Below are positions 2,553 through 46,991 of a DNA stretch of 52,697 nt, one piece after another. Numbering within the stretch: position 1 is the first letter of the stretch; the number at the start of each line of letters is the position of its first letter. The position numbers were made by a program, and so were the translations under genes. The notes under the pieces were generated by a model. It searched no databases, was not told where the DNA came from, and saw only the letters and a program-made list of their open reading frames with translations. The DNA is from a virus: positions 1 to 52,697 of IMG/VR virus record IMGVR_UViG_3300026097_001084. One strand, 5' to 3'.

Positions 2553-3325
2553 TAATATTGGTTTGTGATTACTTCATTTAAAGATGGAATTCTATCATAC
2601 TGGTGAACTAATACATAAGGAGTATCTCCATTCATTACAATTCCATCTTTAATTTCTACTTCAGCTTTTTCAAATCTTTTTGGATTTTTTATAGAATCAA
2701 CCTGTAAAGCGAAATCTGAGTTTAGTTTTATTTTATCAGATACCAAAGAATTGTTTAATAAAAGGTTTAGTGCTGATTGGTCTGTAAAGTGAGTAGTATC
2801 GCCACCCTGAGATATCAACCAATTTACCATTAGTAAATCTTTCATTGATTGGTATTTACCTGCCATGACACCAACGTTAGCAACTACGTTTGATTTTATT
2901 GAATCCCAAAATATAGGTCCATATCCTTCGTGAATATTTTTCCTTGCCCAAGGTTCATCTTCATTTTTAATATTTTCAGATGCGACTATGATTTCTGATT
3001 GTAGATTTTTACTCAACCAATCTGATGGGTTAGTTTGCCAGACAATATCACGAACATCGGTGGTGATTATATGATTCCATTTACGAGAATCGTTTTCAAG
3101 GAAATACCACATATCAATCAATCTTCTCATATGAGGATGCCCGTGAAGTTCCATACCATAACATTCCCAACCATTTGATTTTAGATAATCAACTGTTTCT
3201 GTTGGTATATTATAACATATCATAACTTTATCACCACTAAAACCAGAATTATTTAAAGATTCAATATAAATTTTTATTTTCTCTGGTAAGTAATTTGCTA
3301 TTGCTGATATTACTAAATCTTTCAT
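2552..3325 (-). CDS. Glycosyltransferase-like protein (nucleotide-diphospho-sugar transferase type)
   Basis: A 257-residue soluble protein. The N-terminus (DLVISAIANY...) and the stretch 'IITTDVRDIVWQTNP' near residue 90 resemble glycosyltransferases in which a 'TDVRD' segment carries the acidic metal-binding residues and marks a strand end. A later 'FTDQSALNLLL' element resembles the 'D-Q-x-x-x-N' block seen in such enzymes. It overlaps both neighbours by 1-4 bases, so it is an operon member. The exact family is uncertain; I see no alternative fold. Confidence 0.6.
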   Translation of the reverse strand: MKDLVISAIANYLPEKIKIYIESLNNSGFSGDKVMICYNIPTETVDYLKSNGWECYGMELHGHPHMRRLIDMWYFLENDSRKWNHIITTDVRDIVWQTNPSDWLSKNLQSEIIVASENIKNEDEPWARKNIHEGYGPIFWDSIKSNVVANVGVMAGKYQSMKDLLMVNWLISQGGDTTHFTDQSALNLLLNNSLVSDKIKLNSDFALQVDSIKNPKRFEKAEVEIKDGIVMNGDTPYVLVHQYDRIPSLNEVITNQY

Positions 3326-3900
3326 CTTTTGAAGAATTTAAAATTAAAATAATTTATTTCTTCTTTGAATAACTCATCTACCTTTTTACGAGTTTCCTCA
3401 TCGTAATATTCACGTGCATTATAAGAAAATGTAGTTTTTTGTGATTTTCTATGAGCCGGTTTTGGAATAATTTTATTTAACTCAACTGGATTTTCAATAT
3501 TCAATTGATTACATACTTCCAAATAATCTTCTTTTATATTTTCAAAGAAACCAATAAAATCTACATCAATTTTACCTTCTTTATTTTTTAAATATATCAT
3601 CTGGTCCATTGGATTATTATCTTGCCATGAGGCAATCCAATCAACATCCCACCCAACATTACACCCACCATGAACCCATTTTCTAAATCCTTTTATTTCG
3701 TGTCCATATTGATGTCTATACCAAGAAACTAAACGAGTGTAGGTATTTCTTACAAATGCAAAAGAATAATCATAATCAATATTTTTTTCTTGAAAATATC
3801 CAAGAGTGTGGTGGCCATTTGGTGTTTTTAAAGCAGTACCAATTGATGTACTACCTGTTTTTGGTATTCTTATGAATAAAACTTTTTGTTTATTTTCCAT
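3322..3900 (-). CDS. Sulfotransferase family protein
   Basis: A 192-residue protein. Residues 10-18, 'RIPKTGSTS', match the 5'-phosphosulfate-binding loop of PAPS-dependent sulfotransferases (IPKTGST). 'FVRNTYTRLVSWY' near residue 50 matches the 3'-phosphate-binding motif (RNPYxRLVSxY). These two motifs in order define the Sulfotransfer_2-type carbohydrate sulfotransferases. The protein is short for the family but retains the core. It has no membrane anchor, unlike eukaryotic relatives, so it acts in the cytoplasm on a soluble or membrane-surface acceptor. It sits among glycosyltransferases, overlapping the upstream GT by 11 bases, so sulfation of a phage-directed glycan is the likely role. 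Confidence 0.8.
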   Translation of the reverse strand: MENKQKVLFIRIPKTGSTSIGTALKTPNGHHTLGYFQEKNIDYDYSFAFVRNTYTRLVSWYRHQYGHEIKGFRKWVHGGCNVGWDVDWIASWQDNNPMDQMIYLKNKEGKIDVDFIGFFENIKEDYLEVCNQLNIENPVELNKIIPKPAHRKSQKTTFSYNAREYYDEETRKKVDELFKEEINYFNFKFFKR

Positions 3901-4630
3901 ATTTTTTCCAATCGTTATGCTTAAACAACCCCTCTCCGTGTGCTACTTTGAAATCTTGTTTAACCCACCACTTACCAATATTACCTTCTAATGCAATACC
4001 ATCACCTGCGAAGTTCTGAACCACATCTAAGTAAAATTGTTTTTTATACATAGTAGGATTATTTGTCCAATTAGCCCAACGTGAGGTGGTTGTAAAATAT
4101 TCTCCTTCTTTTTTAATTTTATCACCAAATTCTACATCAGGTTCTAACCAATGTAATGAATCCAATAAGTGAGGTGAAGTTGCCCCTATTTCTTTATCAA
4201 AATAAGTCAATTCCTCTCCTCTATGTCTGAATGAAAAATGAGGTACACCTGGATTTCTGCGATGTCTGTATCGTACTGCAGATGTTCCATTATTCAATAA
4301 ATCAATACCACTTTGTAACCTTTCTAAAGTAGTTGGTAAATCTTCTATCAAGTTCCAATCATGTTCTAATACTAAAACATTATCAGTTTTTGCATTCTTG
4401 GTTAGTTCAATAAAAGCCTGTCCTATTCCAATATTATTCTTATAAGGTAAATATGGTATATTAAAATGTTTAGCTATTTTTAAATCAGTTTCTGAGAATT
4501 CTTGGAAAAGAATCGTAACATCATTTACATGATGTAGAAAGCTTCTATCAAAATAGGTCTGTAAAGTATCAATTAAAACTTGATTACTTTTCCATGATAA
4601 AATACCAATACTTAGTGGAAGTTTTTCCAT
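3890..4630 (-). CDS. Family 2-like glycosyltransferase
   Basis: A 246-residue protein opening with 'LSIGILSWKS', a typical first strand of GT2-like nucleotide-sugar transferases. It continues with 'NNIGIGQAF' and 'VLVLEHDW' (residues about 85-92), where E-H-D replaces the classical DXD. The middle contains an Arg/His-rich segment (YRHRRNPG) and a Trp-rich C-terminal part (SRWANWTNNP, KWWVKQDF) that may bind the acceptor. Its end overlaps the sulfotransferase start by 11 bases and it begins 2 bases after the epimerase stop. A single-sugar transferase acting in the same glycan pathway is the natural reading. Confidence 0.65.
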   Translation of the reverse strand: MEKLPLSIGILSWKSNQVLIDTLQTYFDRSFLHHVNDVTILFQEFSETDLKIAKHFNIPYLPYKNNIGIGQAFIELTKNAKTDNVLVLEHDWNLIEDLPTTLERLQSGIDLLNNGTSAVRYRHRRNPGVPHFSFRHRGEELTYFDKEIGATSPHLLDSLHWLEPDVEFGDKIKKEGEYFTTTSRWANWTNNPTMYKKQFYLDVVQNFAGDGIALEGNIGKWWVKQDFKVAHGEGLFKHNDWKKYGK

Positions 4631-4632
4631 TT

Positions 4633-5487
4633 TTATAATGAATCAATATATTCTTTTAATCTATCCTGAGGTTTCCAACCTAATCTATTTAAACTATCAT
4701 CATTTTCACGAAGAGTTTTGCGATAGTTTCCTGGCTGGTCTGGTAAATACATTGCATCAGAACCAAACTTTTCTTTAAACATACCATAAACTTCATTTAT
4801 AGAATAATTCACACCAGTACCAAGTTCCCATGCATCTTCATGTGATTCTGAACTCATACCAACCTTATATAGTGCATCTACAATATCATCTATATGAGTA
4901 AAATCTCTTCTTTGTTCACCATCACCAACTATTGTTATAGGTTGATTATCCCTAACCTGTCTCCTCCATATACCAATTACTGCAGCCCAATCACCATCTA
5001 CGATTTCATGTGGCCCATATACATTATAAAAACGAGTTATCTCAACATCCAAATTATAAACTTTTCTATATAATTTAAATATTTCCTCACCCATATGTTT
5101 AAATGCTGCATAAGGGGATTTCATCGGGTCATGCCATCTTGAGGATGAACCGGCATAGATTACTTTTACATTACCATGCCTTGCAAATTCAGCAACTGCT
5201 CTACTTCCTATTGTATTTACTCTAAAAGTTTCAGTTGGGTCATCAAAAGATGGTTGAATACGAGATAGGGCAGCTAGATGATAAACTATATCAAATGATT
5301 CACCTTTAATATATTCAATCTGCTCTATATCACCTGTGATATAATTACACCCCTCTTGTTCATTTTCTTTTAAACCACTATCGTAGTTATCCAATGAATG
5401 AACTTCATGTCCTTCTGATAATAATCGTTTGATTAAATTGGTACCAATAAATCCAGCTCCGCCAGTTACTAATATCTTTTTACTCAT
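4633..5487 (-). CDS. NAD-dependent sugar epimerase/dehydratase (extended SDR)
   Basis: A 284-residue extended short-chain dehydrogenase of the UDP-glucose 4-epimerase type. The N-terminal Rossmann motif 'GGAGFIGTNL' binds NAD. 'YHLAALSR' follows at about residue 70. The catalytic region has Ser-Ser ('YAGSSSRWHD') and the Tyr-x3-Lys pair in 'SPYAAFK'. 'RFYNVYGPHE' is the usual substrate-binding stretch and 'RRDFTHIDDIV' the usual C-terminal hallmark. It should interconvert or dehydrate an activated sugar in the cytoplasm and so supply a donor for the surrounding glycosyltransferases. The exact sugar cannot be decided. It overlaps the upstream gene by 8 bases. Confidence 0.88.
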   Translation of the reverse strand: MSKKILVTGGAGFIGTNLIKRLLSEGHEVHSLDNYDSGLKENEQEGCNYITGDIEQIEYIKGESFDIVYHLAALSRIQPSFDDPTETFRVNTIGSRAVAEFARHGNVKVIYAGSSSRWHDPMKSPYAAFKHMGEEIFKLYRKVYNLDVEITRFYNVYGPHEIVDGDWAAVIGIWRRQVRDNQPITIVGDGEQRRDFTHIDDIVDALYKVGMSSESHEDAWELGTGVNYSINEVYGMFKEKFGSDAMYLPDQPGNYRKTLRENDDSLNRLGWKPQDRLKEYIDSL

Positions 5488-6367
5488 GTGAATTCCACTT
5501 ATTAAATTTCTCTATTATAAATTCTACTCTTTGTTTTTGGGTATGATTTTCTAAAACTTTATTATAACCATTCTGAGCAATTCGTTCTCGTTCTTCTGAG
5601 TTTTCTTGGTAATAATTTAGTTTGTTTATACAATCTACGATATCATCATAAAAGATAATATCTTCACCTTCAATAAATAGTTCGTGTAATTTTTTTGATT
5701 CTTTTAATCTATCACATAATACCAACTTTTTACAAGCCATCCCTTCGAAGATTCTGCGAGTAACTTCTCCCCAACGTGAATTTTGAATTACCATTAATCC
5801 TTTGTTCAAAAATTCAGTATGTTCTTTAGGACCTAAACCATTTTTATTTCCAATCGTACCATTACCATGGTCAGTTAGTGTATTTAGAAATTGTGAATTT
5901 CCATAACCACGAGTAGTTACTCCTACAAACTCTGGTTGTATATCCAATGGAACCTGAACTTTAGTATCTGCGAAGTGTGTCCACCAATATGCATCTCTAC
6001 CACGTTTTTTATATTCTTCAGTTGAATCCGAATCAGGTGAAAGTGTAATATGAAATCGTTCTGATTTTGGAAAGTTTCTTTCGAAGTTCTGTGGGTCATC
6101 TCCACTTTCTTGTACCCAAAATGCATCCACTAAATTCTTATCTAAAAGAGGTGAATCAAACCTACCCCAGTCAAGATATATAACAATATCGGTTTGTGGT
6201 TTAGAGTATATCCATTCTTGTAAATCTCTACCATGGTATTGATTTTTTCTATTAGAACCAATAGAAACGATATCAACTTCCCAACCTAATTCCTTGAACT
6301 CATTTACAAGGGCAAGAGGAGTAGACCATTCTTCGTTTTCGTATGCATAGATAAAGGTTACTTTCAT
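5480..6367 (-). CDS. GT-B glycosyltransferase (CgeB/Glyco_trans_1_2-like)
   Basis: A 295-residue protein when started at ATG 6367. That start overlaps the upstream gene's TGA in the ATGA arrangement and leaves the first strand 'MKVTFIYAYENEEW' at the N-terminus; an in-frame start 30 bases further up would add ten residues of non-family sequence. The N-terminal half has an 'IVIYLDWGRFD' strand. The C-terminal half has 'NSRWGEVTRRIFEGMACKK' plus 'VLCDRL', the nucleotide-sugar-binding signature of GT4-like/CgeB-type enzymes (E-x7-E spacing relaxed). It is cytoplasmic and shorter than usual GT4 enzymes. Operon member within the glycan cluster. Confidence 0.7.
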   Translation of the reverse strand: MKVTFIYAYENEEWSTPLALVNEFKELGWEVDIVSIGSNRKNQYHGRDLQEWIYSKPQTDIVIYLDWGRFDSPLLDKNLVDAFWVQESGDDPQNFERNFPKSERFHITLSPDSDSTEEYKKRGRDAYWWTHFADTKVQVPLDIQPEFVGVTTRGYGNSQFLNTLTDHGNGTIGNKNGLGPKEHTEFLNKGLMVIQNSRWGEVTRRIFEGMACKKLVLCDRLKESKKLHELFIEGEDIIFYDDIVDCINKLNYYQENSEERERIAQNGYNKVLENHTQKQRVEFIIEKFNKWNSHE

Positions 6368-7179
6368 GATACTGCTCTTCCTTTCATTTCTTCCCAATCT
6401 CTATTAGTACGAACTTGAGTATTTGTTTGTTCTGCTGCACTTAGAACATTATCTATAACATTTAAGTTTTCTGCTAGGTGAATCAATGCGGCTAAATCTT
6501 TAGGGAAACAATGACCACCAAACCCAAAATCACCATCATGACCTGGTACATTCCAATGTGATTTTCCTAATCGTTCATCGTAAGTTGCATACTCAACTAC
6601 TTTATCGTAATCAACATTTAATCCTTCGCAAATTTGATATATCTCATTTGCAAATGATACCTTTACCGAAAGGAATGTATTGGTTAGATACTTCACCATC
6701 TCTGCATGAGTTGAATCGGTTTTGATGATATGTGCTTTTGGGAATACCTTAGAGAACACCCCTTTTAATTCAGTTGTTGTTGGTCTTGGTCCTCCCAAGA
6801 TAATACGAGATTGATTCTCATAATCTTTAACCGCATTTCTTTCAGTTAAAAATTCAGGGTTAAATACAATGTTTGTTTTGTATTCATCATTCCATCCTTG
6901 GGTAGTACCCGGTACAATAGTTGACTTAACCACAATACCTTTTGCTTTTCCAATATCATCTATTTGTTTGATTACATCTTCTACAATATCAGTATTACAA
7001 CTACCATCTTCGTTCATTGGAGTTGGTAAACAAGTGAATACATAATCACACTTAGCTACCTTATCGAATGTTGAGTTGCATTTAGTTTCATCTAAATCAT
7101 ATGTGAGTACCTGATAAAATTCTTTGAATTTCTGATACACTGCGTTTCCTACAAAACCTTGCCCTATTATTCCTATCAT
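6364..7179 (-). CDS. UDP-glucose/GDP-mannose dehydrogenase family protein, short form
   Basis: A 271-residue NAD-dependent sugar dehydrogenase. 'IGIIGQGFVGNAV' is the Rossmann nucleotide loop and 'CLPTPMNEDG' the second hallmark. 'STIVPGTT', 'NPEFLTERNA' and 'KYLTNTFLSVKVSFANE' form the central dehydrogenase signature with the conserved Lys and Asn. 'FGFGGHCFPKD' carries the catalytic cysteine. Typical family members are about 390-440 residues; this one stops just after the catalytic Cys region and lacks the C-terminal UDP-binding domain. It may make a sugar acid such as a uronate. It overlaps the next gene's start and abuts the small membrane protein gene at 7179, consistent with one operon. 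Confidence 0.85.
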   Translation of the reverse strand: MIGIIGQGFVGNAVYQKFKEFYQVLTYDLDETKCNSTFDKVAKCDYVFTCLPTPMNEDGSCNTDIVEDVIKQIDDIGKAKGIVVKSTIVPGTTQGWNDEYKTNIVFNPEFLTERNAVKDYENQSRIILGGPRPTTTELKGVFSKVFPKAHIIKTDSTHAEMVKYLTNTFLSVKVSFANEIYQICEGLNVDYDKVVEYATYDERLGKSHWNVPGHDGDFGFGGHCFPKDLAALIHLAENLNVIDNVLSAAEQTNTQVRTNRDWEEMKGRAVS

Positions 7180-7385
7180 TATTTAATTTCTTTTCCGTAA
7201 TTTATATTATTCCATAATCTCTCAAATCCATAAAAAAATACCAATCCACTTACATTCATTATAATCGCATTCCAAAAATTAGAATCCACTAAACTCAAAG
7301 ATAATATAGTCCAAGAGTTTGTAACCGCAACTAATCTCCATGAGATAGTTTTAAATAAAGTTCTTTTTTTGGTTTCCTTAAACAT
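7179..7385 (-). CDS. DUF2061-like small membrane protein
   Basis: A 68-residue protein when started at ATG 7385, which overlaps the upstream stop by one base (TAATG) and leaves the family-typical opening 'KKRTLFKTISWRLVAV'. An upstream in-frame ATG would add 23 residues that lie inside the previous gene. Two hydrophobic segments (about 15-35 and 38-58) make it a likely two-helix inner-membrane protein. The pattern K-T-x-S-W-R-x-x-A, then T-x-x-x-T, then a C-terminal 'FFYGFERLWN' is that of DUF2061. The family has no established function. It sits between a GT2 and a sugar dehydrogenase, so a role at the membrane step of glycan handling is possible. Confidence 0.75.
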   Translation of the reverse strand: MFKETKKRTLFKTISWRLVAVTNSWTILSLSLVDSNFWNAIIMNVSGLVFFYGFERLWNNINYGKEIK

Positions 7386-8008
7386 TATATTGTTTCGTAA
7401 AATTTGTTTTGTTTTTCTTGTCTTTGGATTTCCTTTGGGTGATATAAAGACCATTCTTCTTCTGAAGGAAAGTTTGAAAATGTATCATAACCAGTTAGAG
7501 TTTCATGTACTTTATTTTTCCACTCCACCGCTTCGGTTCTACGATATATTCTTAATTGATAATCTGGAAAGTTTACCCAACCCTTTTCATTTACATTCCA
7601 TCTCCATTTTTGAATATGTTCTTCAGTTAATCCATCAACTGTATTTACTCTTGGTACGAATACTACATCGACTGGATTATCTTCCAATACTTGAGGTAAC
7701 CAATTTACCAAATTTTCGTGTGGTAGTTCATCTGCATCAATTTGGAATACATAATCTTTGGTACAATGATTCTTTAGGTTGTTTTTAAATGTACCAAAAT
7801 CCTTATTGAGTGGAAACCCTACTATGGTGTAAGAATGCATCTTAGACATGATATCTAAGTATTCCATAACTTCTTGAGTAACAGATGTTTCATCATATTG
7901 AACTACGATTTCATCATCTTCTCTAATATTATTTTGTAAAAAATTGAGAAGTTTAGTTAACTCCTCAATCTCATTACATACGGTTATTGCGTAACTAATC
8001 GTTTTCAT
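7385..8008 (-). CDS. Family 2 glycosyltransferase
   Basis: A 207-residue GT2-type enzyme. The first strand is 'ISYAITVCNE', the nucleotide-binding Asp/Glu lies in 'DEIVVQYDE', and the metal-binding motif is 'FQIDADELPHE' near residue 92. 'LRIYRRTEAVEWKNKVHE' near residue 155 is the C-terminal acceptor block often found in LPS-type glycosyltransferases of the WaaE/KdtX kind. No membrane helix is seen. It overlaps the upstream gene by 14 bases. It probably transfers one sugar onto a lipid-linked or LPS-like acceptor. Confidence 0.8.
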   Translation of the reverse strand: MKTISYAITVCNEIEELTKLLNFLQNNIREDDEIVVQYDETSVTQEVMEYLDIMSKMHSYTIVGFPLNKDFGTFKNNLKNHCTKDYVFQIDADELPHENLVNWLPQVLEDNPVDVVFVPRVNTVDGLTEEHIQKWRWNVNEKGWVNFPDYQLRIYRRTEAVEWKNKVHETLTGYDTFSNFPSEEEWSLYHPKEIQRQEKQNKFYETI

Positions 8009-8510
8009 CTACTTCTTGTTCTATATCTGCTTGTCTTGTTGATGCGGTTGAACCTTCTTTAAATAATTCTTGTAAGAAATCTTGTTCAAAACGAATTTCA
8101 TATACATTCTGAATATTATTTAAAAAGTAAGTTCTGTAATTTCCAAGTGCTTTGGAATATATTTTAGAATTGTTTTTTACATAGGTTTCAAATAAACTTT
8201 TTCCATCTACCGAAAACTTTTTTAGAAATAACCATAACATCTGGTCTGAACCTAATGGTATTCTTTTATCTCTTAGTTTGTTAATAAAGTTGGTAAAATC
8301 AACCGGTCTAATATCATTGAGTTTCAAAGCATGCACCTTCCCATCAACGATACCAATTACAAAAATGTATCTTGCATCTTCACCACTTTTAGTAATAGGA
8401 TTACCACCTTTGTAGGTGGTAATTCTATATATGTTTCTTGGTTTGATTAGAGATTTTGCAATTCTTTTCTCTGGTTTTAAAAATTGTTTATATTGTCTTG
8501 TAAATGCCAT
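7995..8510 (-). CDS. Hypothetical protein, 171 aa
   Basis: I do not recognise this 171-residue protein. It begins with a basic segment rich in Lys/Arg, has a predicted beta-rich middle ('YIFVIGIVDGKVHALKLNDI'), then a helical part, and ends in an acidic tail (E-Q-E-V-D-E-N-D). The stretch 'NIYRITTYKGG' near residue 26 and 'YFLNNIQNVYEIRFEQDFL' near 128 look like an ordered core. There are no Cys clusters or P-loops. It lies between a GT2 and a GT4 gene with a 14-base overlap on one side and one base on the other, so it is co-translated with the glycan genes, but could be structural. Confidence 0.55.
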   Translation of the reverse strand: MAFTRQYKQFLKPEKRIAKSLIKPRNIYRITTYKGGNPITKSGEDARYIFVIGIVDGKVHALKLNDIRPVDFTNFINKLRDKRIPLGSDQMLWLFLKKFSVDGKSLFETYVKNNSKIYSKALGNYRTYFLNNIQNVYEIRFEQDFLQELFKEGSTASTRQADIEQEVDEND

Positions 8511-8511
8511 T

Positions 8512-9771
8512 CTATAATTTGTTTATAGTTGGTAGTTTTAATTCTACTTTTTTCTGAACTTTTACGTACTTATCAAGTATTCCTTTCAGAACTTCGGTTT
8601 GTTTCTCTATGGTAAAGTTCTTTTGGATATTAGTTTTTAATCCCTTAGATTTGGTTAAGTAAGTTTTGTAGTTCTTATGTACATCAAAAATCTTTTGGGC
8701 TGCTTTAGAATAATCTACTGTAAACCATTTTGCTTCTTCTAACAAAAATTTATTTGCTGCTGATTTATGAATTGGAGTCAACTGCCCTTCTAAATAAACT
8801 GTGTTTTCTTTTGGTAAGAAATCCTTGAATCCACTCCAATCTGAAACTAGAATTGGTTTACCTGTTGTTGCAAACTCTGCAAGTGGTCTACCATATCCTT
8901 CTCCTTTGGTAAACATTAAAAAGGATTTAACTTTATCATCATTGTAAAGTGAGTTTAATTCACTTTCTGATAAATCACCAAATACTAAATGAATAGGAGG
9001 ACACTTATCACCATATTCATTGGTAACTTGTTTAATCTTATCTGCAATTACTTCTCGCTCACCTACTGAAAATCCTGCAGCAGATGTTTTTAAAATAAGA
9101 CCTGGTTGTTGTTTCTTTGGTAAATCTTTGAAAACAGTACAAAATGTTTTAATCATCATTCCAACATCTTTTCTATCTTGTCCCAAATCTCCTGCTAACC
9201 AATGTCCTACAAAGAGGAAGTTGAAATCAGTATCAACTCCTTCTAAAATAGAAGAAGAAGATTTACCATTGAATACATCTAAATCCACTCCTTCAAATAA
9301 AACTTCTACGGGTGTATTTAGTTTTAATTCTCCAATTGGTTGTTTGGTATTTTTATCAACTTGATTGAATGAAGTTTTTACTAAAACATCTTTGGTAAAC
9401 TGAGATGGTGTTATAATCAAATCCATTTGATTACCTCCTTGTAAAAATTCAGAAGGTGAGATGGTAGATTCTACCCCTGCAGTTATGCCAATGTTATACT
9501 TACCAAGTTTTCTAAACTCATTGGCAACTGATATTTGAATATAAACATCAGGTTGTTGAGTTAGTTGGGTTACAATACGTTCAAGTACCATTCTACCAAA
9601 ATCAGTTTGTGGGTCTAATTGGTCTTGTGGAGTATTTCCCCATCTCGTTGGTATAATTTTAATATCATACATATCCAACTCGAAAAGTGATTTGAGAATA
9701 TCTCTACTATGGTCACCATATCCACTACGAGTTGCGATTGGTGATTGAAATACTAATGTTGGTTTACTCAT
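8512..9771 (-). CDS. GT4-type glycosyltransferase
   Basis: A 419-residue GT-B enzyme. The N-terminal domain starts with 'LVFQSPIATRSGYGDHSRDI', the glycine-rich acceptor loop of GT4 enzymes. The C-terminal domain contains 'FNFLFVGHW', a 'KDVGMMIKTF' helix and, near residue 290, 'MFTKGEGYGRPLAEFATTGKPILVSDWSG'-type sequence, i.e. the E-G-x-G-x-P-x-x-E signature that binds the sugar nucleotide. Length is normal for the family. The start is the same SKP-(T/I) opening as the small gene upstream, overlapping it by 8 bases. It is cytoplasmic. It probably adds a hexose to a growing glycan; donor and acceptor are unknown. Confidence 0.82.
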   Translation of the reverse strand: MSKPTLVFQSPIATRSGYGDHSRDILKSLFELDMYDIKIIPTRWGNTPQDQLDPQTDFGRMVLERIVTQLTQQPDVYIQISVANEFRKLGKYNIGITAGVESTISPSEFLQGGNQMDLIITPSQFTKDVLVKTSFNQVDKNTKQPIGELKLNTPVEVLFEGVDLDVFNGKSSSSILEGVDTDFNFLFVGHWLAGDLGQDRKDVGMMIKTFCTVFKDLPKKQQPGLILKTSAAGFSVGEREVIADKIKQVTNEYGDKCPPIHLVFGDLSESELNSLYNDDKVKSFLMFTKGEGYGRPLAEFATTGKPILVSDWSGFKDFLPKENTVYLEGQLTPIHKSAANKFLLEEAKWFTVDYSKAAQKIFDVHKNYKTYLTKSKGLKTNIQKNFTIEKQTEVLKGILDKYVKVQKKVELKLPTINKL

Positions 9772-10042
9772 TATCTAATTCTTTTAATCTGTTTTCTTCC
9801 TCATTTCTTAAACATCTATCGATGGATAATTGAGTGAGTTTTGTTATATTTTCTAATTTTTCTGGTTCGTGTGGGGAATTAAAACATTCAAATTTGGTAG
9901 TTTCAATTTCATTATCTTGTAAAACAATGATATGATAATCTTCATTCAAATCCTTCATACCATGAATCGCCTTACGAGATTCGTTTACTTGATTTGATGT
10001 CCAATAACCCGGTACACGAATTATGAATATTGGTTTACTCAT
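9764..10042 (-). CDS. Hypothetical protein, 92 aa
   Basis: A 92-residue protein that I do not recognise. It opens with a hydrophobic strand 'PIFIIRVPGYW', has a helix with 'ESRKAIHGMKDL', a second strand 'YHIIVLQDNE' and an acidic/basic helical C-terminus. This alternation suggests a small alpha/beta domain. Both boundaries overlap glycosyltransferase genes (8 bases and 1 base), so it is translated with them; a small accessory subunit is conceivable. Confidence 0.55.
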   Translation of the reverse strand: MSKPIFIIRVPGYWTSNQVNESRKAIHGMKDLNEDYHIIVLQDNEIETTKFECFNSPHEPEKLENITKLTQLSIDRCLRNEEENRLKELDNE

Positions 10043-11430
10043 TATCTAAGTTTATATACGTTGAACTTTTTCTTTGGTTTCCAATTCTTAAAGGTAGTTT
10101 CAATTCCTTCAACAAGTGTATCACACATGTTCTGACGATTTAATCCCATTTCTCCCATGAATTCTTTTCTACCTTCTAAACCGGCTTCTTTTCGTTCTTG
10201 TGGTGTTTTATCGTACCAATATCTAATTGCATCAGCTACTTCATAAACATCCACTTTATCATCAATGATATAAGGAGTAGGAACTGACCCAACCATAGTT
10301 TGAACTCTCGGCCATACTGGTTTTACCCAAGAACCATGGGTTACTTTATCTTCCCAATCTCTGTAATTGTGAAGTGAACCTATTTCAATATAATCGTCTG
10401 CCGTTAAATACTTACCATCTACTTTAAATCCACATTGGTCTTGTAATCCACCTGTAACATTTACAATCGATGGAGTACCTGCCATAACTGATTCTGCAGT
10501 TACTAAACCAAATCCTTCATTACCAGCGATGTTGATTGTACAATCTGATAAATTGTATAGGTAGTTTAATTGTTCTTGTGATACCCTATCTGTTGAGAAT
10601 TTGATATCACAATCAGGTGCGAGGGTTTTTTGTACTTCAATTAAATTTGTACCATTTTGGTCTACTGGTGCAGTATGCATTATCAAACATACTTTATCTT
10701 TATCTTCTTCGGGTAGAGAATCTCTAAACTTAGAGAATGCCCAAATAACATCTGATGGTTGTTTACGTTTGATATTTCGGTTCATCCAAAAAAGTACGAA
10801 CTTGTAATCTTTATCACCTAAAACCTTTTGTCTGAAATCATGTGGTACTTCAGTTGGTTTGTATAAATCTGGATTAATTCCATGTGGTACATATGATACT
10901 TGCCAATCTTCCAATGGTTTTATTGTTTCTGATTCAATCTTACCAACACGATTGACAATACCATAAGTTTGTCTTGAAATACACCCTAACCAATCACATG
11001 ACTCGTAGTAATCTCTATTATATTTTGGGTCTGGTAAATCATCCCAAATATGGTAGAAAAGGATTGGAATATTCTGTCTTAACTCGGCCTCCATTTCATA
11101 TAACCATCTCCAATATCTTGGGTCTGTAAAGTGTAGGATTGCATCAGGTTGATGTCTCATGATTAATTCACGAAGAATATTTGCATCACCATATCCACTC
11201 CAAGGAATTAGTTTAAGAGAGGCATCTTCAATACCACTAATCTTACGAGCATCATTACCTAAATCTATTTCTTTACCTTTTTCTGGATGTTCTACTGCAG
11301 CTGCTAATTGAACCCAATCATAATGTTCAAGGGTTCCGAACACTAAATCTTTAGATACTGTTGCGATACCAGATGACATACGTAAATCATCTGATAATAA
11401 AAGAATCTTTTTCTTTTTTATTTCTGACAT
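10042..11430 (-). CDS. GT4-type glycosyltransferase
   Basis: A 462-residue GT-B enzyme. The opening 'KILLLSDDLRMSSGIATVS' has the acceptor-side glycine loop. Mid-protein are 'ILHFTDPRYW' and 'LFYHIWDDLPDPKYNRDYYES'. The C-terminal domain has 'FVLFWMNRNIKRKQPSDVIWAF' and the signature 'IAGNEGFGLVTAESVMAGTPSIV' around residue 300, matching the E-G-F-G-x-x-x-x-E sugar-nucleotide site of GT4. No signal peptide. It is the most upstream glycosyltransferase of this operon, 11 bases after the RHH gene, so it is probably transcribed from the promoter near 11680. Confidence 0.85.
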   Translation of the reverse strand: MSEIKKKKILLLSDDLRMSSGIATVSKDLVFGTLEHYDWVQLAAAVEHPEKGKEIDLGNDARKISGIEDASLKLIPWSGYGDANILRELIMRHQPDAILHFTDPRYWRWLYEMEAELRQNIPILFYHIWDDLPDPKYNRDYYESCDWLGCISRQTYGIVNRVGKIESETIKPLEDWQVSYVPHGINPDLYKPTEVPHDFRQKVLGDKDYKFVLFWMNRNIKRKQPSDVIWAFSKFRDSLPEEDKDKVCLIMHTAPVDQNGTNLIEVQKTLAPDCDIKFSTDRVSQEQLNYLYNLSDCTINIAGNEGFGLVTAESVMAGTPSIVNVTGGLQDQCGFKVDGKYLTADDYIEIGSLHNYRDWEDKVTHGSWVKPVWPRVQTMVGSVPTPYIIDDKVDVYEVADAIRYWYDKTPQERKEAGLEGRKEFMGEMGLNRQNMCDTLVEGIETTFKNWKPKKKFNVYKLR

Positions 11431-15411: not shown

Positions 15412-15423
15412 GTAACTTTGTTA

Positions 15424-15458
15424 TAAAAAAAGAGGGAGGTGTTATCCTCCCCCTCTTA
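15424..15458 (-). terminator. Rho-independent terminator after the TonB-dependent receptor gene
   Basis: On the minus strand a G/C-rich stem GAGGGGGAGG / CCTCCCTC with a loop of about six bases (ATAACA) is followed at once by a run of seven T. It begins 19 bases after the receptor's stop codon. The G+C richness stands out in this A+T-rich genome. Confidence 0.9.
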
Positions 15459-15476
15459 TATTAAATATAAATTATC

Positions 15477-18182
15477 TTAGAATCTATACTTCAATGAAGC
15501 GTTCCAAGTTCTTCCAAATCCAAACCAAACGGAATTATTTACATCAATACCATTCCAAGTTGTTGAACCTGCAGTAGCATGGATGTTAGAGTTTGATTCA
15601 GCGATGTAAACTGTATCAAATAAGTTATTGATGTTTACACGAGCACTAAACTTACCTAAGTAAAGAGTAGCACCTAAATCAGCTAAACCGAATGATGGGA
15701 GTTTAAGGGCACCATCGTTGTCTGGTTGTGTGAAAGCTGAATCTGTAATAGAGTAATCTGCGTAAAGACCATCTACGAAACGATATCCAAAGTCAAGGTT
15801 TAGTTTTCCTAAACGATATGCAATTTCACCAAATGAAGTGAATTGTGCAGCATCACCAACTTTAGCACCTTTGGTATAAAGTGTTCCAGTTCCAATAGAT
15901 TGTTGGTTCTCATCGAATAACTCTGCTTCGAAATCTTTAGTATATTCCCAATCACCGATTGATAACATACCACGAAGTGTTAAACGATTAGTTGGACGAA
16001 ATTCTCCTTCTACCTCAACTCCATTGTGTAATACATCAATGTTACGGAACTGAGCGAATCCATCAACACCTTGTTGGTTAGTTAATGAACGAGTTACGAA
16101 ACGATTACCCCAGGTTGTAGAGTAAGCATTCACTTTAACATCTAACTTACGAGATGTGTATCCATATCCAAGTTCTACTGAACGAATCTCCTCATTTTGT
16201 AAATCAGTATTGATTACGTTTGCGTAGTTAGGGAATACAGCATCGAATAAAGGTTGGCGAGAAATGATACCTGTGTTAAAGAACACATTTGATTTTTCGT
16301 TAAAGTTGTAGTTTGCACCACCTTTAACATATCCACCACCTTGGTTCTGAGTTTCAGAAATAGGATTTCCTGGTTGGTCAAAGTAATCGATTCTTTGGAA
16401 AGCTTGGTTTGATAAACCACCTTGTAATACTGCGGTTAGTTTTTCTTCATCGTTATACTCGATTAAACCATTAACACCTTGCCATCCAACTTTACCAATA
16501 TTGTAGTAATCAATCTTTGGGCCACGAATACCAGTATCGCGGAATGGATTAGCAGATACAGTTGTTTCAATGATTTGACCAGCAGAGTTCTTATTACCAG
16601 TTGAGTAATAACCATCTAAACCAAGTAAATCATTTAGAACACGATAGTGGTAACCTGTATAAGAACGAAGGTCTACACCAATCGAATACTTGAACTTACC
16701 GCTTTGGATATCTAATGATGAAATAGCACCAACCCAATCGTGTGAGTTCATTGAAGCTCTACGAACAAGAACTTCACGAGATACTCCATCTTCGCGGAAA
16801 CCATTTGAACCAATAAGTAATCCATCGTATTGACCTCTACCAATATCACCAGTGTAAGGAGAAGGTGATTGTTGGTTTGCAGCAACTACTGCATCAAAGT
16901 CAATAAATCCATTTGCTAAACGAGAACCTCTACCATTTTCTAAGTAATGTTCTGTTAAGTCTTTACGGAAAGGTAAAAGGTCAAGGGCACTGTTACGATA
17001 GTTGTTCCCACGAGGACCAGTTCCTCCACCACGACCTGCTGAACCATATAAAGAGGTTGCAAGTGTTACATTATCTGAAATTTTGTAATCCCAGTTAATA
17101 GTAGCAAGTGGTTTGTTGTAGAAGTTTCTACGAAGGTTGTATTCTTCACCATTTAGAACACCACCATTTGAGTTCCATCTTCTATCAATACCTGCTTCAC
17201 CGAAGTTTTGGTAATCACGAATAGAAACCCAAACATCTCTTTGGTGGTGCCATTGTCCAGCTCCTAAGAAAGAGAAGTTTAGTGAGTGTTTCGAATCATC
17301 AGGTGCATAACCCAATGCGAAGAAGTAAGTTAAACCTTCACCACTTGTGTTATAGATGTATCCATCACCTTGCCATCTTGATAATAAGATAGATGATGCC
17401 CATCCATTTTCATTTTTACCACTATTATAAACAACAGCAGTTTTTTGGAATCCATCGTTACCAACTGTTTGTGTAAGTGAACCACCCTCGGCCACATCAG
17501 CAGTTTTGGTAAAAATAGAAACAGTTCCCCCAACTGAAGGAACTGCAAGACGAGAAGCTCCTAAACCTCTCTGAATTTGGATACCACTAGCAACATCTGT
17601 TAAACCCTGCCAGTTAGACCAATAAACCCATCCATTTTCCATGTCGTTGACAGGTTGTCCGTTGATAAGGAATGAAGTGTTTCTTTGGTCAAATCCACGA
17701 AGTGAGATACGAGAATCACCATAACCCCCACCTTGCTTCGTTGCGTACACACCAGGAGTACGGTTCATAATCTCAGGAAACTCTTGGTTTCCTACTTTGA
17801 GTGCAATCTCACTCGCCTTAATAGATGATACTGCAATTGGAGTTACTCGTTCTTTCGCAACATCAATTACACCAGATGTGAGAATAACCTCATCTAATGT
17901 TTCTGCTGATAATACTAAGGAAACTGTAATTCCTTGTTTTGCAGTAACCTCTTGTGTCAAGTATCCAAGATACGAAATCACAAGTGTGTTTCCTGCGGTT
18001 GCTGAATCAATAGTAAAGTTACCATCAAAATCAGTTACAACTCCATCATTCGTTCCTTTAACGAGAATGGTTGCACCTGGTAATGGGTCATTACTATTGG
18101 AATCAACTACTTTCCCACTAATCTGTGCGAAAGTCATAAATGATGATAACATCATTAATCCAACTAATAATAGTCTTTTCAT
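15477..18182 (-). CDS. TonB-dependent outer-membrane receptor
   Basis: A full-length 901-residue TonB-dependent receptor. Residues 1-19 are a signal peptide ending 'FMTFA'. Residues 20-95 are a carboxypeptidase-regulatory-like domain ('ISGKVVDS', 'PLPGATILVKGT', 'TDFDGNFTI', 'VISYLGY') typical of Bacteroidota receptors. A TonB-box-like 'LDEVILTSG' follows. The plug (about 115-225) has 'NRTPGVYATKQGGGYGDSRISLRGFDQRN'-type sequence, 'FLINGQPVN' and 'GGTVSIFTK'. The rest is a beta-barrel with many Tyr/Asn/Gly turns, ending 'SLKYRF' with a terminal Phe for BAM recognition. No frameshift is visible, and the base composition is less A+T-rich than the neighbours, hinting at host origin. It has its own terminator. 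In bacteria such receptors import siderophores, vitamins or glycans; in a phage it might feed the infected cell or alter surface receptors. Confidence 0.93.
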   Translation of the reverse strand: MKRLLLVGLMMLSSFMTFAQISGKVVDSNSNDPLPGATILVKGTNDGVVTDFDGNFTIDSATAGNTLVISYLGYLTQEVTAKQGITVSLVLSAETLDEVILTSGVIDVAKERVTPIAVSSIKASEIALKVGNQEFPEIMNRTPGVYATKQGGGYGDSRISLRGFDQRNTSFLINGQPVNDMENGWVYWSNWQGLTDVASGIQIQRGLGASRLAVPSVGGTVSIFTKTADVAEGGSLTQTVGNDGFQKTAVVYNSGKNENGWASSILLSRWQGDGYIYNTSGEGLTYFFALGYAPDDSKHSLNFSFLGAGQWHHQRDVWVSIRDYQNFGEAGIDRRWNSNGGVLNGEEYNLRRNFYNKPLATINWDYKISDNVTLATSLYGSAGRGGGTGPRGNNYRNSALDLLPFRKDLTEHYLENGRGSRLANGFIDFDAVVAANQQSPSPYTGDIGRGQYDGLLIGSNGFREDGVSREVLVRRASMNSHDWVGAISSLDIQSGKFKYSIGVDLRSYTGYHYRVLNDLLGLDGYYSTGNKNSAGQIIETTVSANPFRDTGIRGPKIDYYNIGKVGWQGVNGLIEYNDEEKLTAVLQGGLSNQAFQRIDYFDQPGNPISETQNQGGGYVKGGANYNFNEKSNVFFNTGIISRQPLFDAVFPNYANVINTDLQNEEIRSVELGYGYTSRKLDVKVNAYSTTWGNRFVTRSLTNQQGVDGFAQFRNIDVLHNGVEVEGEFRPTNRLTLRGMLSIGDWEYTKDFEAELFDENQQSIGTGTLYTKGAKVGDAAQFTSFGEIAYRLGKLNLDFGYRFVDGLYADYSITDSAFTQPDNDGALKLPSFGLADLGATLYLGKFSARVNINNLFDTVYIAESNSNIHATAGSTTWNGIDVNNSVWFGFGRTWNASLKYRF

Positions 18183-18254: not shown

Positions 18255-18554
18255 TTAAAGGATACCTATCAATTCATGTTCTCTAAATAACATAAATTCT
18301 TCACCTCCTAATTTTATTGTTTCACCTCCACCATCTTTTTTAAATAAGATAGTATCACCTACTTTTACTGTCATGGGAATCTTATCACCTGTTTGAGAAA
18401 AGATACCCGCTCCTACCGAAACTACTTTTCCTTCTACGAGTTGACCTCGCATTACAGAATCATTTAAGATAATCCCACCACTTGATTTTTTTTCTGTATG
18501 TGATTCTGTTTTTACCAAAACTCTATCACCTAATGGTCTAAAATTATTCATCAT
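18255..18554 (-). CDS. groES: Co-chaperonin GroES
   Basis: A 99-residue GroES/Hsp10. 'FRPLGDRVLVK' at the N-terminus, the mobile-loop region ('EKKSSGGIILNDS'), 'GKVVSVGAGI', 'VKVGDTILFKKDGG' and the C-terminal 'EEFMLFREHELIGIL' are all present. This is the normal size for bacterial GroES, unlike T4 gp31, which only replaces GroES functionally. It should cap the GroEL ring and help fold capsid or other phage proteins. The cognate groEL lies about 4.1 kb upstream (22676-24292), with the clamp and clamp-loader genes between them. Two ATG codons are adjacent at the start (18554 and 18551). A 42-codon frame overlaps the start by 11 bases. Confidence 0.93.
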   Translation of the reverse strand: MMNNFRPLGDRVLVKTESHTEKKSSGGIILNDSVMRGQLVEGKVVSVGAGIFSQTGDKIPMTVKVGDTILFKKDGGGETIKLGGEEFMLFREHELIGIL

Positions 18555-22675: not shown

Positions 22676-24432
<1,757 letters not shown>

Positions 24433-30467: not shown

Positions 30468-31262
30468 TTACCAAAAATTTACTTTATTTTCTGATTCGAT
30501 AGTTTCATAGTGTTCTATCTTTGGTAAATAATCTTCTAAGTTCTTTGGATAAGGATAAACTTTGTGTTTCAATTTTGATTTCAACTTCTTAGTTTCTCCT
30601 TTAGTTTGACCTAATATCTGAATGTATCTATTCTTAGGTGCTTCTTTCTTTCTCCAAAATTCTTTATAACCATCTTTACCAACTGCCTCTTTTAGTTTTT
30701 CTATATTATGTGAACCCCACTTAGAAAATACAGTTCTTGAATGTATCCACTTATAAGGGTCTTTAGTTAATGATATACTAAAGTTTGGCATCAGTTGTAT
30801 TTGTGATGTATCTTGGAATAACCAATTTGTTGCTTGGTAAATTCCACCAAGATGTCCTTGCTCAGAATCAGAATAAGAAATCAACATCTTTATATTAGGT
30901 GCATTTTCTTTTAACCACTTAAAAGATTGTCCCATTGAGTATGATTCAATATTAGAACCATAACCATCGTGTATGAACAATCGTGTTAACTCTAAACACT
31001 CATCTTTGCCCAATCCATCAATTACCGAAGTTACTGCTGACCTACCCACTGGATATCCATAAATAAGACAACCTATGAGTTGTTCAGTATTACCCAATAC
31101 ATCTTCGGTATCGGTTTCGTAAAATATACCAAGTGCATACCTACACATTGAAAATGCGTGTGTATAATGATACTTTACAATCATATCCTTACCAGCTGCT
31201 TTACTGATTTCTCTGATTGTAATTTTGGATGTATCCACGTAATGTTTATTCTCCTCCTTCAA
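30468..31262 (-). CDS. Mom-like DNA modification protein (copy 2)
   Basis: A 264-residue protein of the phage Mu Mom type, a GNAT-like fold that adds a carbamoylmethyl group to adenine in Mu DNA. Visible family features are 'KYHYTHAF', 'LIGCLIYGYPVGRSA', 'ECLELTRLFIHDGYGSNIES', 'SFKWLKENAPNIKMLISYSDSEQGH' and 'GGIYQATNWLFQ'. The next gene upstream is a full-length paralogue. The start appears to be TTG at 31262, overlapping the first copy's stop region; its product aligns with the paralogue's 'MKE...Y-x-D-T-S-K' opening, and no ATG exists before residue 27. It probably modifies phage DNA against host restriction. Confidence 0.8.
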   Translation of the reverse strand: MKEENKHYVDTSKITIREISKAAGKDMIVKYHYTHAFSMCRYALGIFYETDTEDVLGNTEQLIGCLIYGYPVGRSAVTSVIDGLGKDECLELTRLFIHDGYGSNIESYSMGQSFKWLKENAPNIKMLISYSDSEQGHLGGIYQATNWLFQDTSQIQLMPNFSISLTKDPYKWIHSRTVFSKWGSHNIEKLKEAVGKDGYKEFWRKKEAPKNRYIQILGQTKGETKKLKSKLKHKVYPYPKNLEDYLPKIEHYETIESENKVNFW

Positions 31263-32007
31263 TTGGTTCTAATTTGCGAATTTCCATTTCTTCAATTTCA
31301 GTATTCTTTGAATATGGTAGTGATGGATGTTTTAAATTTTTCAATAACTTTCTTCTCTCACCACCCTTTGAAAGAATATAAACGTATCTATGCTTTCTTG
31401 GTTCTTTTCTAATCCAAAATGGCTTAGTTACCTGCTTCTGAATTTCTGTGGGGTTATTGGTACCATAGTATGGAAATATAGTTCTACCATGTTGCCACTC
31501 ACCATTTTCATCAAACTTAAATGACCAACTATCATTAAATCGTAAAGAGTTTCCTTGGTAAATCCAATTGGTTGCTTGATATATAGTTCCAGCGTGTCCT
31601 TCTTTCGGGTCTGAATATGATATCAATCCCTTCACTTGTGGTACATTTTCTCGTAACCAATCAAATGTCTTTCCTAAGAACCAACTTTCTATATTAGAAC
31701 CATACCCATCAAAAACAAATAATCTTACCAATTCCAAAACTTCGGTTCTATCTAACATTTCAGATATAGATTGTCCACTCAACCTACCAATTGGGTCACC
31801 ATAACATGCAACTCCAATTAATTTATCTTCAACACCACTAAAGAATGGGTGTTCTTCTATATCGGAAGTAAATAAACCAATAGCGTAAGAAACCTTTGTC
31901 CACAATCCACTATAATGATTATTGATAATGATATCTTTCGCTACCGATTTGTTTATAGCTCTTATTGATAATTTAGAAGTATCACAATATACCTTATCCT
32001 CTTTCAT
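31246..32007 (-). CDS. Mom-like DNA modification protein (copy 1)
   Basis: A 253-residue Mom-type protein. 'NNHYSGLW' (the H-Y-S near the acyl-donor site), 'LIGVACYGDPIGRLSG', 'EVLELVRLFVFDGYGSNIES', 'FDWLRENVPQVKGLISYSDPKEGH' and 'GTIYQATNWIYQGN' are the successive family blocks. It shares all blocks with the following gene but differs in residues around 'GDPIGR/GYPVGR' and in the C-terminal basic tail, so the two may use different positions, bases or partners. It overlaps the HTH gene upstream by 4 bases (ATGA). It acts in the cytoplasm on DNA. Confidence 0.82.
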   Translation of the reverse strand: MKEDKVYCDTSKLSIRAINKSVAKDIIINNHYSGLWTKVSYAIGLFTSDIEEHPFFSGVEDKLIGVACYGDPIGRLSGQSISEMLDRTEVLELVRLFVFDGYGSNIESWFLGKTFDWLRENVPQVKGLISYSDPKEGHAGTIYQATNWIYQGNSLRFNDSWSFKFDENGEWQHGRTIFPYYGTNNPTEIQKQVTKPFWIRKEPRKHRYVYILSKGGERRKLLKNLKHPSLPYSKNTEIEEMEIRKLEPIEGGE

Positions 32008-45767: not shown

Positions 45768-46991
45768 TTAAAATAATTGATTTTTTATTCTTTTAAAATT
45801 TCCCTTACTTAAAATCAGATAACTTGGAACCGAAAATACATTATCGATTACAGGTATTTCTAATATTTTTCTTAATTTATTTTCATCCAACACTTTCAAT
45901 CTATTATTAGAATCTAATAAATTCTGTAATTTAAGTGGTAAATCATGTGTTTTGTAATCTTGCCAAAATTTAGTATCGTTTCTATCACATACATAATGAT
46001 ATTTGATAAAGTTTAAAACTTGTTCATTTACATTTCTAATATGAGTGTTATAAAAATCCCTCTCATCATTTATCAATTGTTTACCATACAAAGCCTCTAA
46101 TTGAATTATAATTGTCATAATTGAAGTTGCCTCTAATGGTTCAAAGAACCCCCCACTTAATCCAATTGAAATACAATTTCCTTTCCACACTTCTTTAAAG
46201 TAACCAGATTCAAATGATATACGTTTTTTAAAATCAATTGATTTACCCAAGTATTCTTCAACTTCTTTTTTTGCATCATCATCTGATACATAATTTGAAT
46301 CAAATACATATCCACATCCCATTCTATCTTGTAATGGTATTCTCCACAACCACCCATATTTCATGGTTATTGCATCGGTTCGTGTATTTGAATTTGAAAA
46401 TAATGGAGTATCGTTTGGTAAATAAAATGGTAGTGCGGAATTAAGAGTAAGATATTGTTTAACTGATATCCATTCTGATTTCATTTGTTTATCCAATACT
46501 AAACGAGAAAACCCACTACAATCAAATATAAAATCAGTATCAACTACACCATTATCTTTTAAATATATTTGGTGAATATTTTCTCCTTTAAATTTAAAAT
46601 CAATAACATCATCTTGAATATAGTTTATACCACGTTCTTTAGCTATATTTTTAAAGTACTCACCCAATGTGTAGGTATCAAAGTGATATGCATAATTTGA
46701 ACTATTGGTGGTGTAGAAATCATGGTTAAAGAAATTATCATCTCCACACCAATTTTTAAAGTGAATACCCACTTTTCTAGTTGAATTAGTATTTTTCTGA
46801 AAATCTTGTTCGTTAATTCCCAATCTATCAAAAAATCTACGAATTACAGGAGTGGTTCCCTCACCAACACCTACAATTCCGACTGATTTACTTTCAACTA
46901 AAGTTACATTGGATTTAGAATGGAATTTGCTCAAAAATATAGCAGTTAACCAACCCGCGGTACCTCCTCCTATTATATAAATATTTTTCAT
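45768..46991 (-). CDS. Flavin-dependent tryptophan halogenase
   Basis: A 407-residue protein of the PrnA/RebH family (Trp_halogenase). 'IYIIGGGTAGWLTAIFL' (residues 4-20) is the FAD-binding G-x-G-T-A-G-W motif, 'GVGEGTTP' the second flavin motif, Lys73 in 'STRKVGIHF' the likely catalytic lysine, and 'WLWRIP' (214-219) the W-x-W-x-I-P signature that separates halogenases from monooxygenases. 'GLSGGFFEPLEATSI' matches the C-terminal flavin block with the E used for catalysis. It is shorter than free-Trp halogenases (about 530), so a peptide or protein substrate is possible. It is flanked by 2OG-Fe(II) oxygenase-type genes (1-base spacings). Confidence 0.88.
   Translation of the reverse strand: MKNIYIIGGGTAGWLTAIFLSKFHSKSNVTLVESKSVGIVGVGEGTTPVIRRFFDRLGINEQDFQKNTNSTRKVGIHFKNWCGDDNFFNHDFYTTNSSNYAYHFDTYTLGEYFKNIAKERGINYIQDDVIDFKFKGENIHQIYLKDNGVVDTDFIFDCSGFSRLVLDKQMKSEWISVKQYLTLNSALPFYLPNDTPLFSNSNTRTDAITMKYGWLWRIPLQDRMGCGYVFDSNYVSDDDAKKEVEEYLGKSIDFKKRISFESGYFKEVWKGNCISIGLSGGFFEPLEATSIMTIIIQLEALYGKQLINDERDFYNTHIRNVNEQVLNFIKYHYVCDRNDTKFWQDYKTHDLPLKLQNLLDSNNRLKVLDENKLRKILEIPVIDNVFSVPSYLILSKGNFKRIKNQLF

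What the first reader, a model, noticed from the sequence alone, without database searches (positions are those of the whole stretch)
15424..18182. Complete TonB-dependent receptor inside a T4-like phage replication region
A 901-residue outer-membrane receptor with signal peptide, regulatory-like domain, plug and barrel lies next to groES and the clamp-loader genes, with its own strong terminator. It is intact and less A+T-rich than its surroundings, which suggests acquisition from a Bacteroidota host. Two roles are plausible: feeding the infected cell with iron, vitamins or glycans, or replacing/masking the receptor the phage uses. A TonB-dependent receptor as a phage-carried gene is, as far as I know, rarely or not described.
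Basis: partly seen in the sequence, partly recalled or inferred. Interest (0 to 1): 0.85.

Follow-up and report, generated by a model that had tools for sequence, protein, structure and literature searches.

The report
Phage-carried outer-membrane nutrient importer
Marine phages that infect Bacteroidota repeatedly carry their own copy of one particular host outer-membrane importer, often in one run of genes with secreted DNA/RNA-cutting enzymes and a nucleotide kinase, which suggests that they feed infected cells with nucleic-acid fragments from outside.

Summary
In detail: an intact 901-aa TonB-dependent receptor (TBDR), with its own terminator, lies in a T4-like replication region. It is not a one-off or a chimera. 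Hundreds of viral-contig stretches encode relatives (best 80: 65-100% identity), in the same gene order in independent assemblies, under purifying selection (dN/dS 0.03-0.21). The composition argument for recent acquisition fails, since third-position GC matches the phage.

New here: (1) all phage copies belong to one orthologous group that is single-copy among the 11-72 TBDR-like hits of each of 12 host genomes checked. Phage and host alleles interleave on the tree (at least 13 changes forced by well-supported branches), the plug-barrel being exchanged under different N-termini. (2) The gene is often part of a cassette: secreted Endonuclease_NS, TBDR, secreted S1/P1 nuclease, dNMP-kinase-like protein. 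Of 36 testable S1/P1 loci (34 on viral or phage contigs), 29 have this TBDR just upstream and 2 have a different TBDR. One host contig has TBDR, S1/P1, nucleoside transporter and Endonuclease_NS together.

Best reading: a working importer feeding phage nucleotide salvage from extracellular nucleic acids (0.5). Import of another nutrient and receptor masking are rivals. One phage TBDR was reported before (Mar_Mega_1, called SusC); this family and cassette I found undescribed.

The parts
15477..18182 (-). TonB-dependent receptor, 901 aa (complete ORF)
   Evidence: 1:1 relatives in 80 viral contigs
18126..18182 (-). signal-peptide-like N-terminus, residues 1-19 (MKRLLLVGLMMLSSFMTFA)
   Evidence: read from sequence; same kind of start in phage homologues; no signal-peptide program was run
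17883..18122 (-). CarboxypepD_reg-like domain, residues 21-100; absent in several phage homologues
17877..17897 (-). TonB-box-like segment LDEVILT (residues 96-102), conserved in most phage and host copies
   Evidence: alignment; assignment as TonB box is inference
17526..17849 (-). plug domain, residues 112-219, nearly invariant (151-210)
15480..17486 (-). 22-strand beta-barrel, residues 233-901, C-terminal Phe
15423..15457 (-). intrinsic terminator downstream of the TBDR
   Evidence: -18.6 kcal/mol, z -4.0, followed by T7; similar hairpins follow most phage homologues
14869..15411 (-). dNMP (thymidylate)-kinase-like AAA protein, the gene after the TBDR here; after the S1/P1 nuclease in other phages
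18255..18554 (-). GroES, gene before the TBDR
   Evidence: the same neighbour in L014-L016, L021, L022, L030, L051, L163
51356..51955 (-). secreted Endonuclease_NS (PF01223), lipoprotein-like start; homologues sit directly upstream of the TBDR in about ten other phage loci, not in this window

Best explanation
The gene encodes a working TonB-dependent outer-membrane importer that these phages keep as an auxiliary gene. It is the phage version of one particular single-copy Bacteroidota TBDR. During infection it would be exported to the outer membrane, powered by the host's TonB-ExbBD, and most likely import small products of nucleic-acid breakdown. In the fullest cassettes a secreted Endonuclease_NS cuts DNA/RNA outside or at the surface, the TBDR brings fragments into the periplasm, a secreted S1/P1 nuclease finishes them there, a host nucleoside carrier takes nucleosides inward, and phage kinase, RNR and often IMP dehydrogenase turn them into dNTPs. 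Shown: the protein family, phage context, conservation, purifying selection, exchange with host alleles, gene linkage. Inferred: expression, export, transport, substrate.
For: Intact plug, TonB-box-like segment and barrel with strong constraint, as expected of an active importer. Of 36 distinct S1/P1 loci with enough upstream sequence, 29 have this TBDR just upstream on the same strand (mostly 49-454 bp) and 26 have the kinase next. Two S1/P1 loci without it (L280, L281) have an unrelated TBDR in the same position, i.e. the function is replaced, not lost. Endonuclease_NS sits directly upstream of the TBDR in about ten phage loci. Bacterial contig L102 joins TBDR, S1/P1, a CNT nucleoside transporter and Endonuclease_NS. 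IMPDH is the gene just upstream of the TBDR in 18 viral loci (16 different contigs). The S1/P1 link changed at least 9 times on the TBDR tree. Marine Bacteroidota are known DNA degraders with extracellular and periplasmic nucleases (PMC8289736).
Against: No direct substrate evidence. The window has no S1/P1 gene and its Endonuclease_NS is 33 kb away (the record is a fragment). 46 labelled TBDR rows, nearly all phage, have no S1/P1 within 2.5 kb. In most hosts the orthologue lies beside pgi or recA, not nucleases, and host S1/P1 genes are unlinked. Host co-occurrence is uninformative: 10/13 TBDR-positive against 22/37 TBDR-negative genomes. Nearest solved folds import PQQ or iron chelates. Endonuclease_NS is common in phages without the TBDR.
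Confidence: 0.5

Rival explanations
1. A working nutrient importer, but for something else (iron chelate, vitamin or cofactor, glycan), maintained because host protein synthesis is shut off in long infections. The nuclease genes are neighbours only because phages group host-derived metabolic genes.
For: Transporter features and constraint as above; structural neighbours are PqqU (PQQ), FhuA, FecA; phage RNR is an iron enzyme; many copies have no nuclease neighbour.
Against: S1/P1 linkage is far tighter than general grouping predicts (29 of 36, plus 2 with another TBDR) and recurs at different genome sites and on a bacterial contig with a nucleoside carrier.
Confidence: 0.28
2. Receptor management: the TBDR (or its host orthologue) is a phage receptor, and the phage copy changes surface receptors to hinder superinfection or loss of progeny to debris.
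For: TBDRs such as FhuA are classic phage receptors (established knowledge; PDB entries of FhuA with T5 pb5 or Llp among the matches). Host alleles at one chromosomal site differ far more than their flanks (L084/L161: TBDR 54%, flanks 82%; L129/L135: 72% against 96%), with exchange of plug-barrel under a conserved N-terminus, as expected of an arms-race locus.
Against: Making a second importer does not remove the first. Plug and TonB-box-like segment are kept nearly invariant, which masking does not need. Phage copies are less variable than host copies in every 30-residue block. No phage of this group has been tied to a receptor.
Confidence: 0.15
3. Passenger or artefact: bacterial contamination, chimeric assembly or a recently captured host gene without function in the phage.
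For: IMG/VR contains fragments; phage and host copies interleave on the tree.
Against: Phage flanking genes in independent contigs, T4-like capsid and/or terminase genes on long records that carry the TBDR (L020, L059, L065, L073), dN/dS 0.03-0.21 in phage pairs, phage-like GC3, a purely phage clade of 26 rows.
Confidence: 0.03

Closest known systems
TonB-dependent receptor (SusC) of marine megaphage Mar_Mega_1 (PMC9723777; probably BFVD A0A8D9FQQ5)
   Same: Full TBDR on a marine phage; the only other TBDR found among viral predicted structures (listed as 'uncultured marine phage'); its authors also proposed nutrient uptake.
   Different: 14% identity in the structural alignment; one genome lineage; called SusC and read as carbohydrate uptake; no linked nuclease cassette mentioned in the passages read.
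Bacteroidota chromosomal orthologue (single copy, e.g. Polaribacter MAG L084, Yeosuana marina L114, Ekhidna lutea L100)
   Same: 50-84% identity over full length, same domains; one per genome among 11-72 TBDR-like hits.
   Different: Chromosomal, usually beside pgi or recA, not linked to nucleases except in Ca. Arcticimaribacter (L102, L103).
SusC/RagA family (TIGR04056)
   Same: CarboxypepD_reg-like domain followed by plug; 100-bit partial match to residues 20-177.
   Different: Far below the family cut-off (368 bits), and no SusD gene recognised nearby.
DNA-degradation loci of marine bacteria (Ca. Izemoplasmatales, Lutibacter; PMC8289736)
   Same: Co-located secreted nucleases, nucleotidases and transporters for nucleic-acid breakdown.
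   Different: Cellular, not viral; no TonB or outer-membrane importer mentioned in that paper's text.
Phage auxiliary nutrient-uptake and nucleotide-salvage genes
   Same: Supply of building blocks to the infected cell.
   Different: Here an energy-coupled outer-membrane importer plus secreted nucleases.

Membership tests
TonB-dependent transporter superfamily | Plug (PF07715) plus TonB_dep_Rec barrel (PF00593) above curated cut-offs | tested here: met
   47 and 32 bits against cut-offs 23.9 and 27
TonB-dependent transporter superfamily | 22-strand barrel fold similar to solved TBDRs | tested here: met
   pLDDT 83.6; PqqU TM (by target) 0.79, FecA 0.80, FhuA 0.75
TonB-dependent transporter superfamily | Signal peptide and TonB box | tested here: inconclusive
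   Both look present and conserved in sequence; no dedicated predictor was available
TonB-dependent transporter superfamily | TonB-dependent uptake of a substrate | not testable with these tools
   needs experiment
SusC/RagA (TIGR04056) | Score above the NCBIfam cut-off | tested here: not met
   100 bits against 368
SusC/RagA (TIGR04056) | Adjacent SusD lipoprotein | tested here: not met
   none recognised among immediate neighbours by reading and by the families searched; not every neighbour was scanned with Pfam
Phage auxiliary metabolic gene | Host-derived gene carried on a genuine phage genome | tested here: met
Phage auxiliary metabolic gene | Expressed during infection and useful to the phage | not testable with these tools
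   purifying selection is indirect support
Nucleic-acid-foraging cassette (as in bacterial DNA-degradation loci) | Importer co-located with secreted nucleases and nucleotide-salvage genes | tested here: met
   for relatives; in the window itself only TBDR + kinase are adjacent
Nucleic-acid-foraging cassette (as in bacterial DNA-degradation loci) | Nucleic-acid products are the transported substrate | not testable with these tools
   needs binding or uptake assay

The most novel reading that the evidence does not exclude
Jumbo T4-like and related marine phages carry a horizontally exchanged nucleic-acid-foraging operon (secreted endonuclease, TonB-dependent importer, S1/P1 nuclease, dNMP kinase) that turns the infected cell into a scavenger of extracellular DNA/RNA, for instance from neighbouring lysed cells, to feed phage replication; the TBDR family would be an outer-membrane importer for nucleic-acid fragments, in phage and host alike.
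Probability: 0.42. Interest if true: 0.88.

Novelty: new variant of a known kind. Interest (0 to 1): 0.76.

Why it matters
Phages are known to steer host metabolism, but mostly through enzymes inside the cell. A phage that installs its own energy-coupled outer-membrane importer, linked to secreted nucleases, would act on what the cell takes in from its surroundings and would tie phage replication to dissolved DNA, a phosphorus and nitrogen source. It also points to a candidate outer-membrane importer for DNA products in Bacteroidota, a step the sediment DNA-degrader study read here does not mention, and to phages as a pool of alleles for a host surface protein.

Tried and rejected
Chimeric contig or contamination: rejected (independent contigs with the same junctions, capsid and terminase on long records). 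Recent acquisition by composition: rejected (GC3). SusC/RagA membership: rejected (score, no SusD recognised). A phage promoter motif upstream of the TBDR (TATRTTTAATTTAA, seen in many relatives): not enriched in the window, left open. Functional inference from the host neighbourhood (pgi, recA): contexts differ between host groups, dropped. Host co-occurrence of TBDR and S1/P1: not informative. Endonuclease_NS alone as a linked gene: weak, common elsewhere. First structure model (22 rows, pLDDT 60.5) was too poor and was replaced. Obligate TBDR in this phage group: rejected, 10 of the 50 DNA-polymerase-related records searched carry it (records may be fragments).

Full report
What is there. 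The window is a 52,697-base viral record with no end repeats. ORF 15477-18182 (-) encodes 901 residues with a signal-peptide-like start, a CarboxypepD_reg-like domain (21-100), a plug (112-219) and a TonB-dependent barrel (353-854), all above Pfam cut-offs. A model built on an 85-row alignment (pLDDT 83.6) has about 22 barrel strands and matches PqqU, FhuA and FecA. A strong hairpin with a T-run follows the gene. The gene lies between GroES and a dNMP-kinase-like gene, inside a T4-like replication region.

It is a real and old phage gene. A scan of viral contigs found 432 stretches encoding relatives; the best 80 are 65-100% identical. Most of these loci share other genes with the window or with each other and not with bacterial loci. 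Long records that carry the TBDR also carry a T4-type Gp23 capsid protein (L020, L059, L065, L073) and three of them terminase; two of those records exceed 250 kb. The same junctions recur in different metagenomes, for example GroES-TBDR-kinase in L014-L016. The TBDR sits at many different places: after GroES, gp44, gp62, NrdA or thioredoxin, IMPDH or a nuclease. It is accessory: 10 of 50 records with a related DNA polymerase have it. Phage pairs show dN/dS 0.03-0.21. GC3 is 0.239 against 0.213 +/- 0.034 for other window genes, and across 79 phage loci it tracks the flanks (r = 0.83), so the higher overall GC is an amino-acid effect.

Relation to hosts. The scan of one genome per species found the same family in Flavobacteriaceae, Schleiferiaceae, Crocinitomicaceae, Roseivirga, Balneolaceae, Saprospiraceae and others, 50-79% identical to the window protein. 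Twelve genomes searched whole each hold exactly one orthologue (1100-1700 bits) beside 10-71 weaker TBDR-like hits (at most 153 bits). So phages took, again and again, the same one of many TBDRs. The tree of 155 rows mixes phage and host copies with 16 changes, at least 13 forced by well-supported branches, and holds a purely phage clade of 26 rows (quick search, LG+G4). At one conserved host site the TBDR differs much more than its neighbours (L084/L161: TBDR 54%, flanks 82%; L129/L135: 72% against 96%), while L084's plug-barrel is mostly about 80-96% identical to that of phage L009, with an unlike N-terminus (38-42%). N-terminal module and plug-barrel are therefore exchanged separately, with a switch near residue 100. 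Direction of transfer was not determined. Bins matter: L093 and L109, filed as bacterial MAG contigs, carry phage genes.

What the neighbours say. In other phages the genes around this TBDR are secreted S1/P1 nuclease (PF02265), secreted Endonuclease_NS (PF01223), IMP dehydrogenase (PF00478), a dNMP-kinase-like AAA protein, phosphoribosyltransferase and NAD synthase. To test the link from the other side I searched viral contigs for S1/P1 itself. After removing duplicates, and counting the MAG contigs L093, L102 and L103, 39 S1/P1 loci remain; 36 have more than 1.5 kb upstream; 29 of these have this TBDR just upstream on the same strand and 26 have the kinase next. Two more (L280, L281) have an unrelated TBDR there. 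The five without are four distant homologues (28-39% identity) and L309. The fullest order, Endonuclease_NS-TBDR-S1/P1-kinase, is seen in L056, L286, L289, L290, L292 and L296. On the TBDR tree the S1/P1 label needs at least 9 changes on supported branches, so the link was made or lost repeatedly. One host contig (L102, Candidatus Arcticimaribacter) has TBDR, S1/P1, an opposite-strand CNT nucleoside transporter and Endonuclease_NS. No S1/P1 relative was found in the annotated phage collection.

Mechanism. I take the protein to be an active importer: plug and TonB-box-like segment are kept, and phage copies are less variable than host copies in every block (the two sets are not equally diverse). 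The linked nucleases and salvage enzymes make nucleic-acid fragments the most likely cargo. Steps shown: family, context, constraint, exchange, linkage. Steps inferred: expression, export, use of host TonB, substrate, passage across the inner membrane by a host nucleoside carrier. In the window itself only the TBDR and the kinase are adjacent; an Endonuclease_NS gene is present at 51356-51955 and no S1/P1 was found in this fragment.

Known work. A putative TBDR (SusC) was reported in megaphage Mar_Mega_1, with carbohydrate uptake suggested (PMC9723777); a 'TonB-dependent receptor SusC' of an uncultured marine phage, probably the same one, is the only other TBDR among viral predicted structures here. 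Lak and other huge phages hold weak plug-like matches. Marine Bacteroidota are reported DNA degraders with extracellular and periplasmic nucleases, but the text of that study does not mention TonB or the outer membrane (PMC8289736). My literature searches cover open-licence papers only, so absence of a report is not proof.

Limits.

Noticed in passing
window 45768-46991: Tryptophan-halogenase-like gene (phrog_2928, 340 bits) on the phage fragment.
   Followed up: no
window 30468-31262 and 31246-32007: Two tandem Mom-like DNA modification genes (phrog_1384).
   Followed up: no
window 3322-11430: Cluster of sugar genes: sulfotransferase-like, nucleotide-sugar epimerase, UDP-glucose-dehydrogenase-like, two glycosyltransferases.
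   Followed up: no
window 22676-24292 and 18255-18554: Phage carries both GroEL and GroES, 4 kb apart; among DNA-polymerase loci GroEL was found almost only where the TBDR is present.
   Followed up: partly
L281:892-2865, L280: A different, shorter TBDR (658 aa) takes the place of this one upstream of S1/P1 and kinase.
   Followed up: partly
L084, L091, L161; L144, L150; L129, L135: Host chromosomal TBDR alleles diverge far more than their flanking genes, with conserved N-termini in some pairs.
   Followed up: partly
L093, L109: Contigs filed under Flavobacteriaceae and Crocinitomicaceae MAGs look like phage contigs.
   Followed up: yes
L032:12757-12999 and homologues: Conserved 81-residue membrane-protein-like ORF between TBDR and S1/P1 in ten loci; no Pfam match.
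   Followed up: no
upstream of TBDR in many phage loci (e.g. L003, L005, L011): Recurrent TATGTTTAATTTAA-like segment 15-25 bases before the start codon; not enriched in the window.
   Followed up: partly
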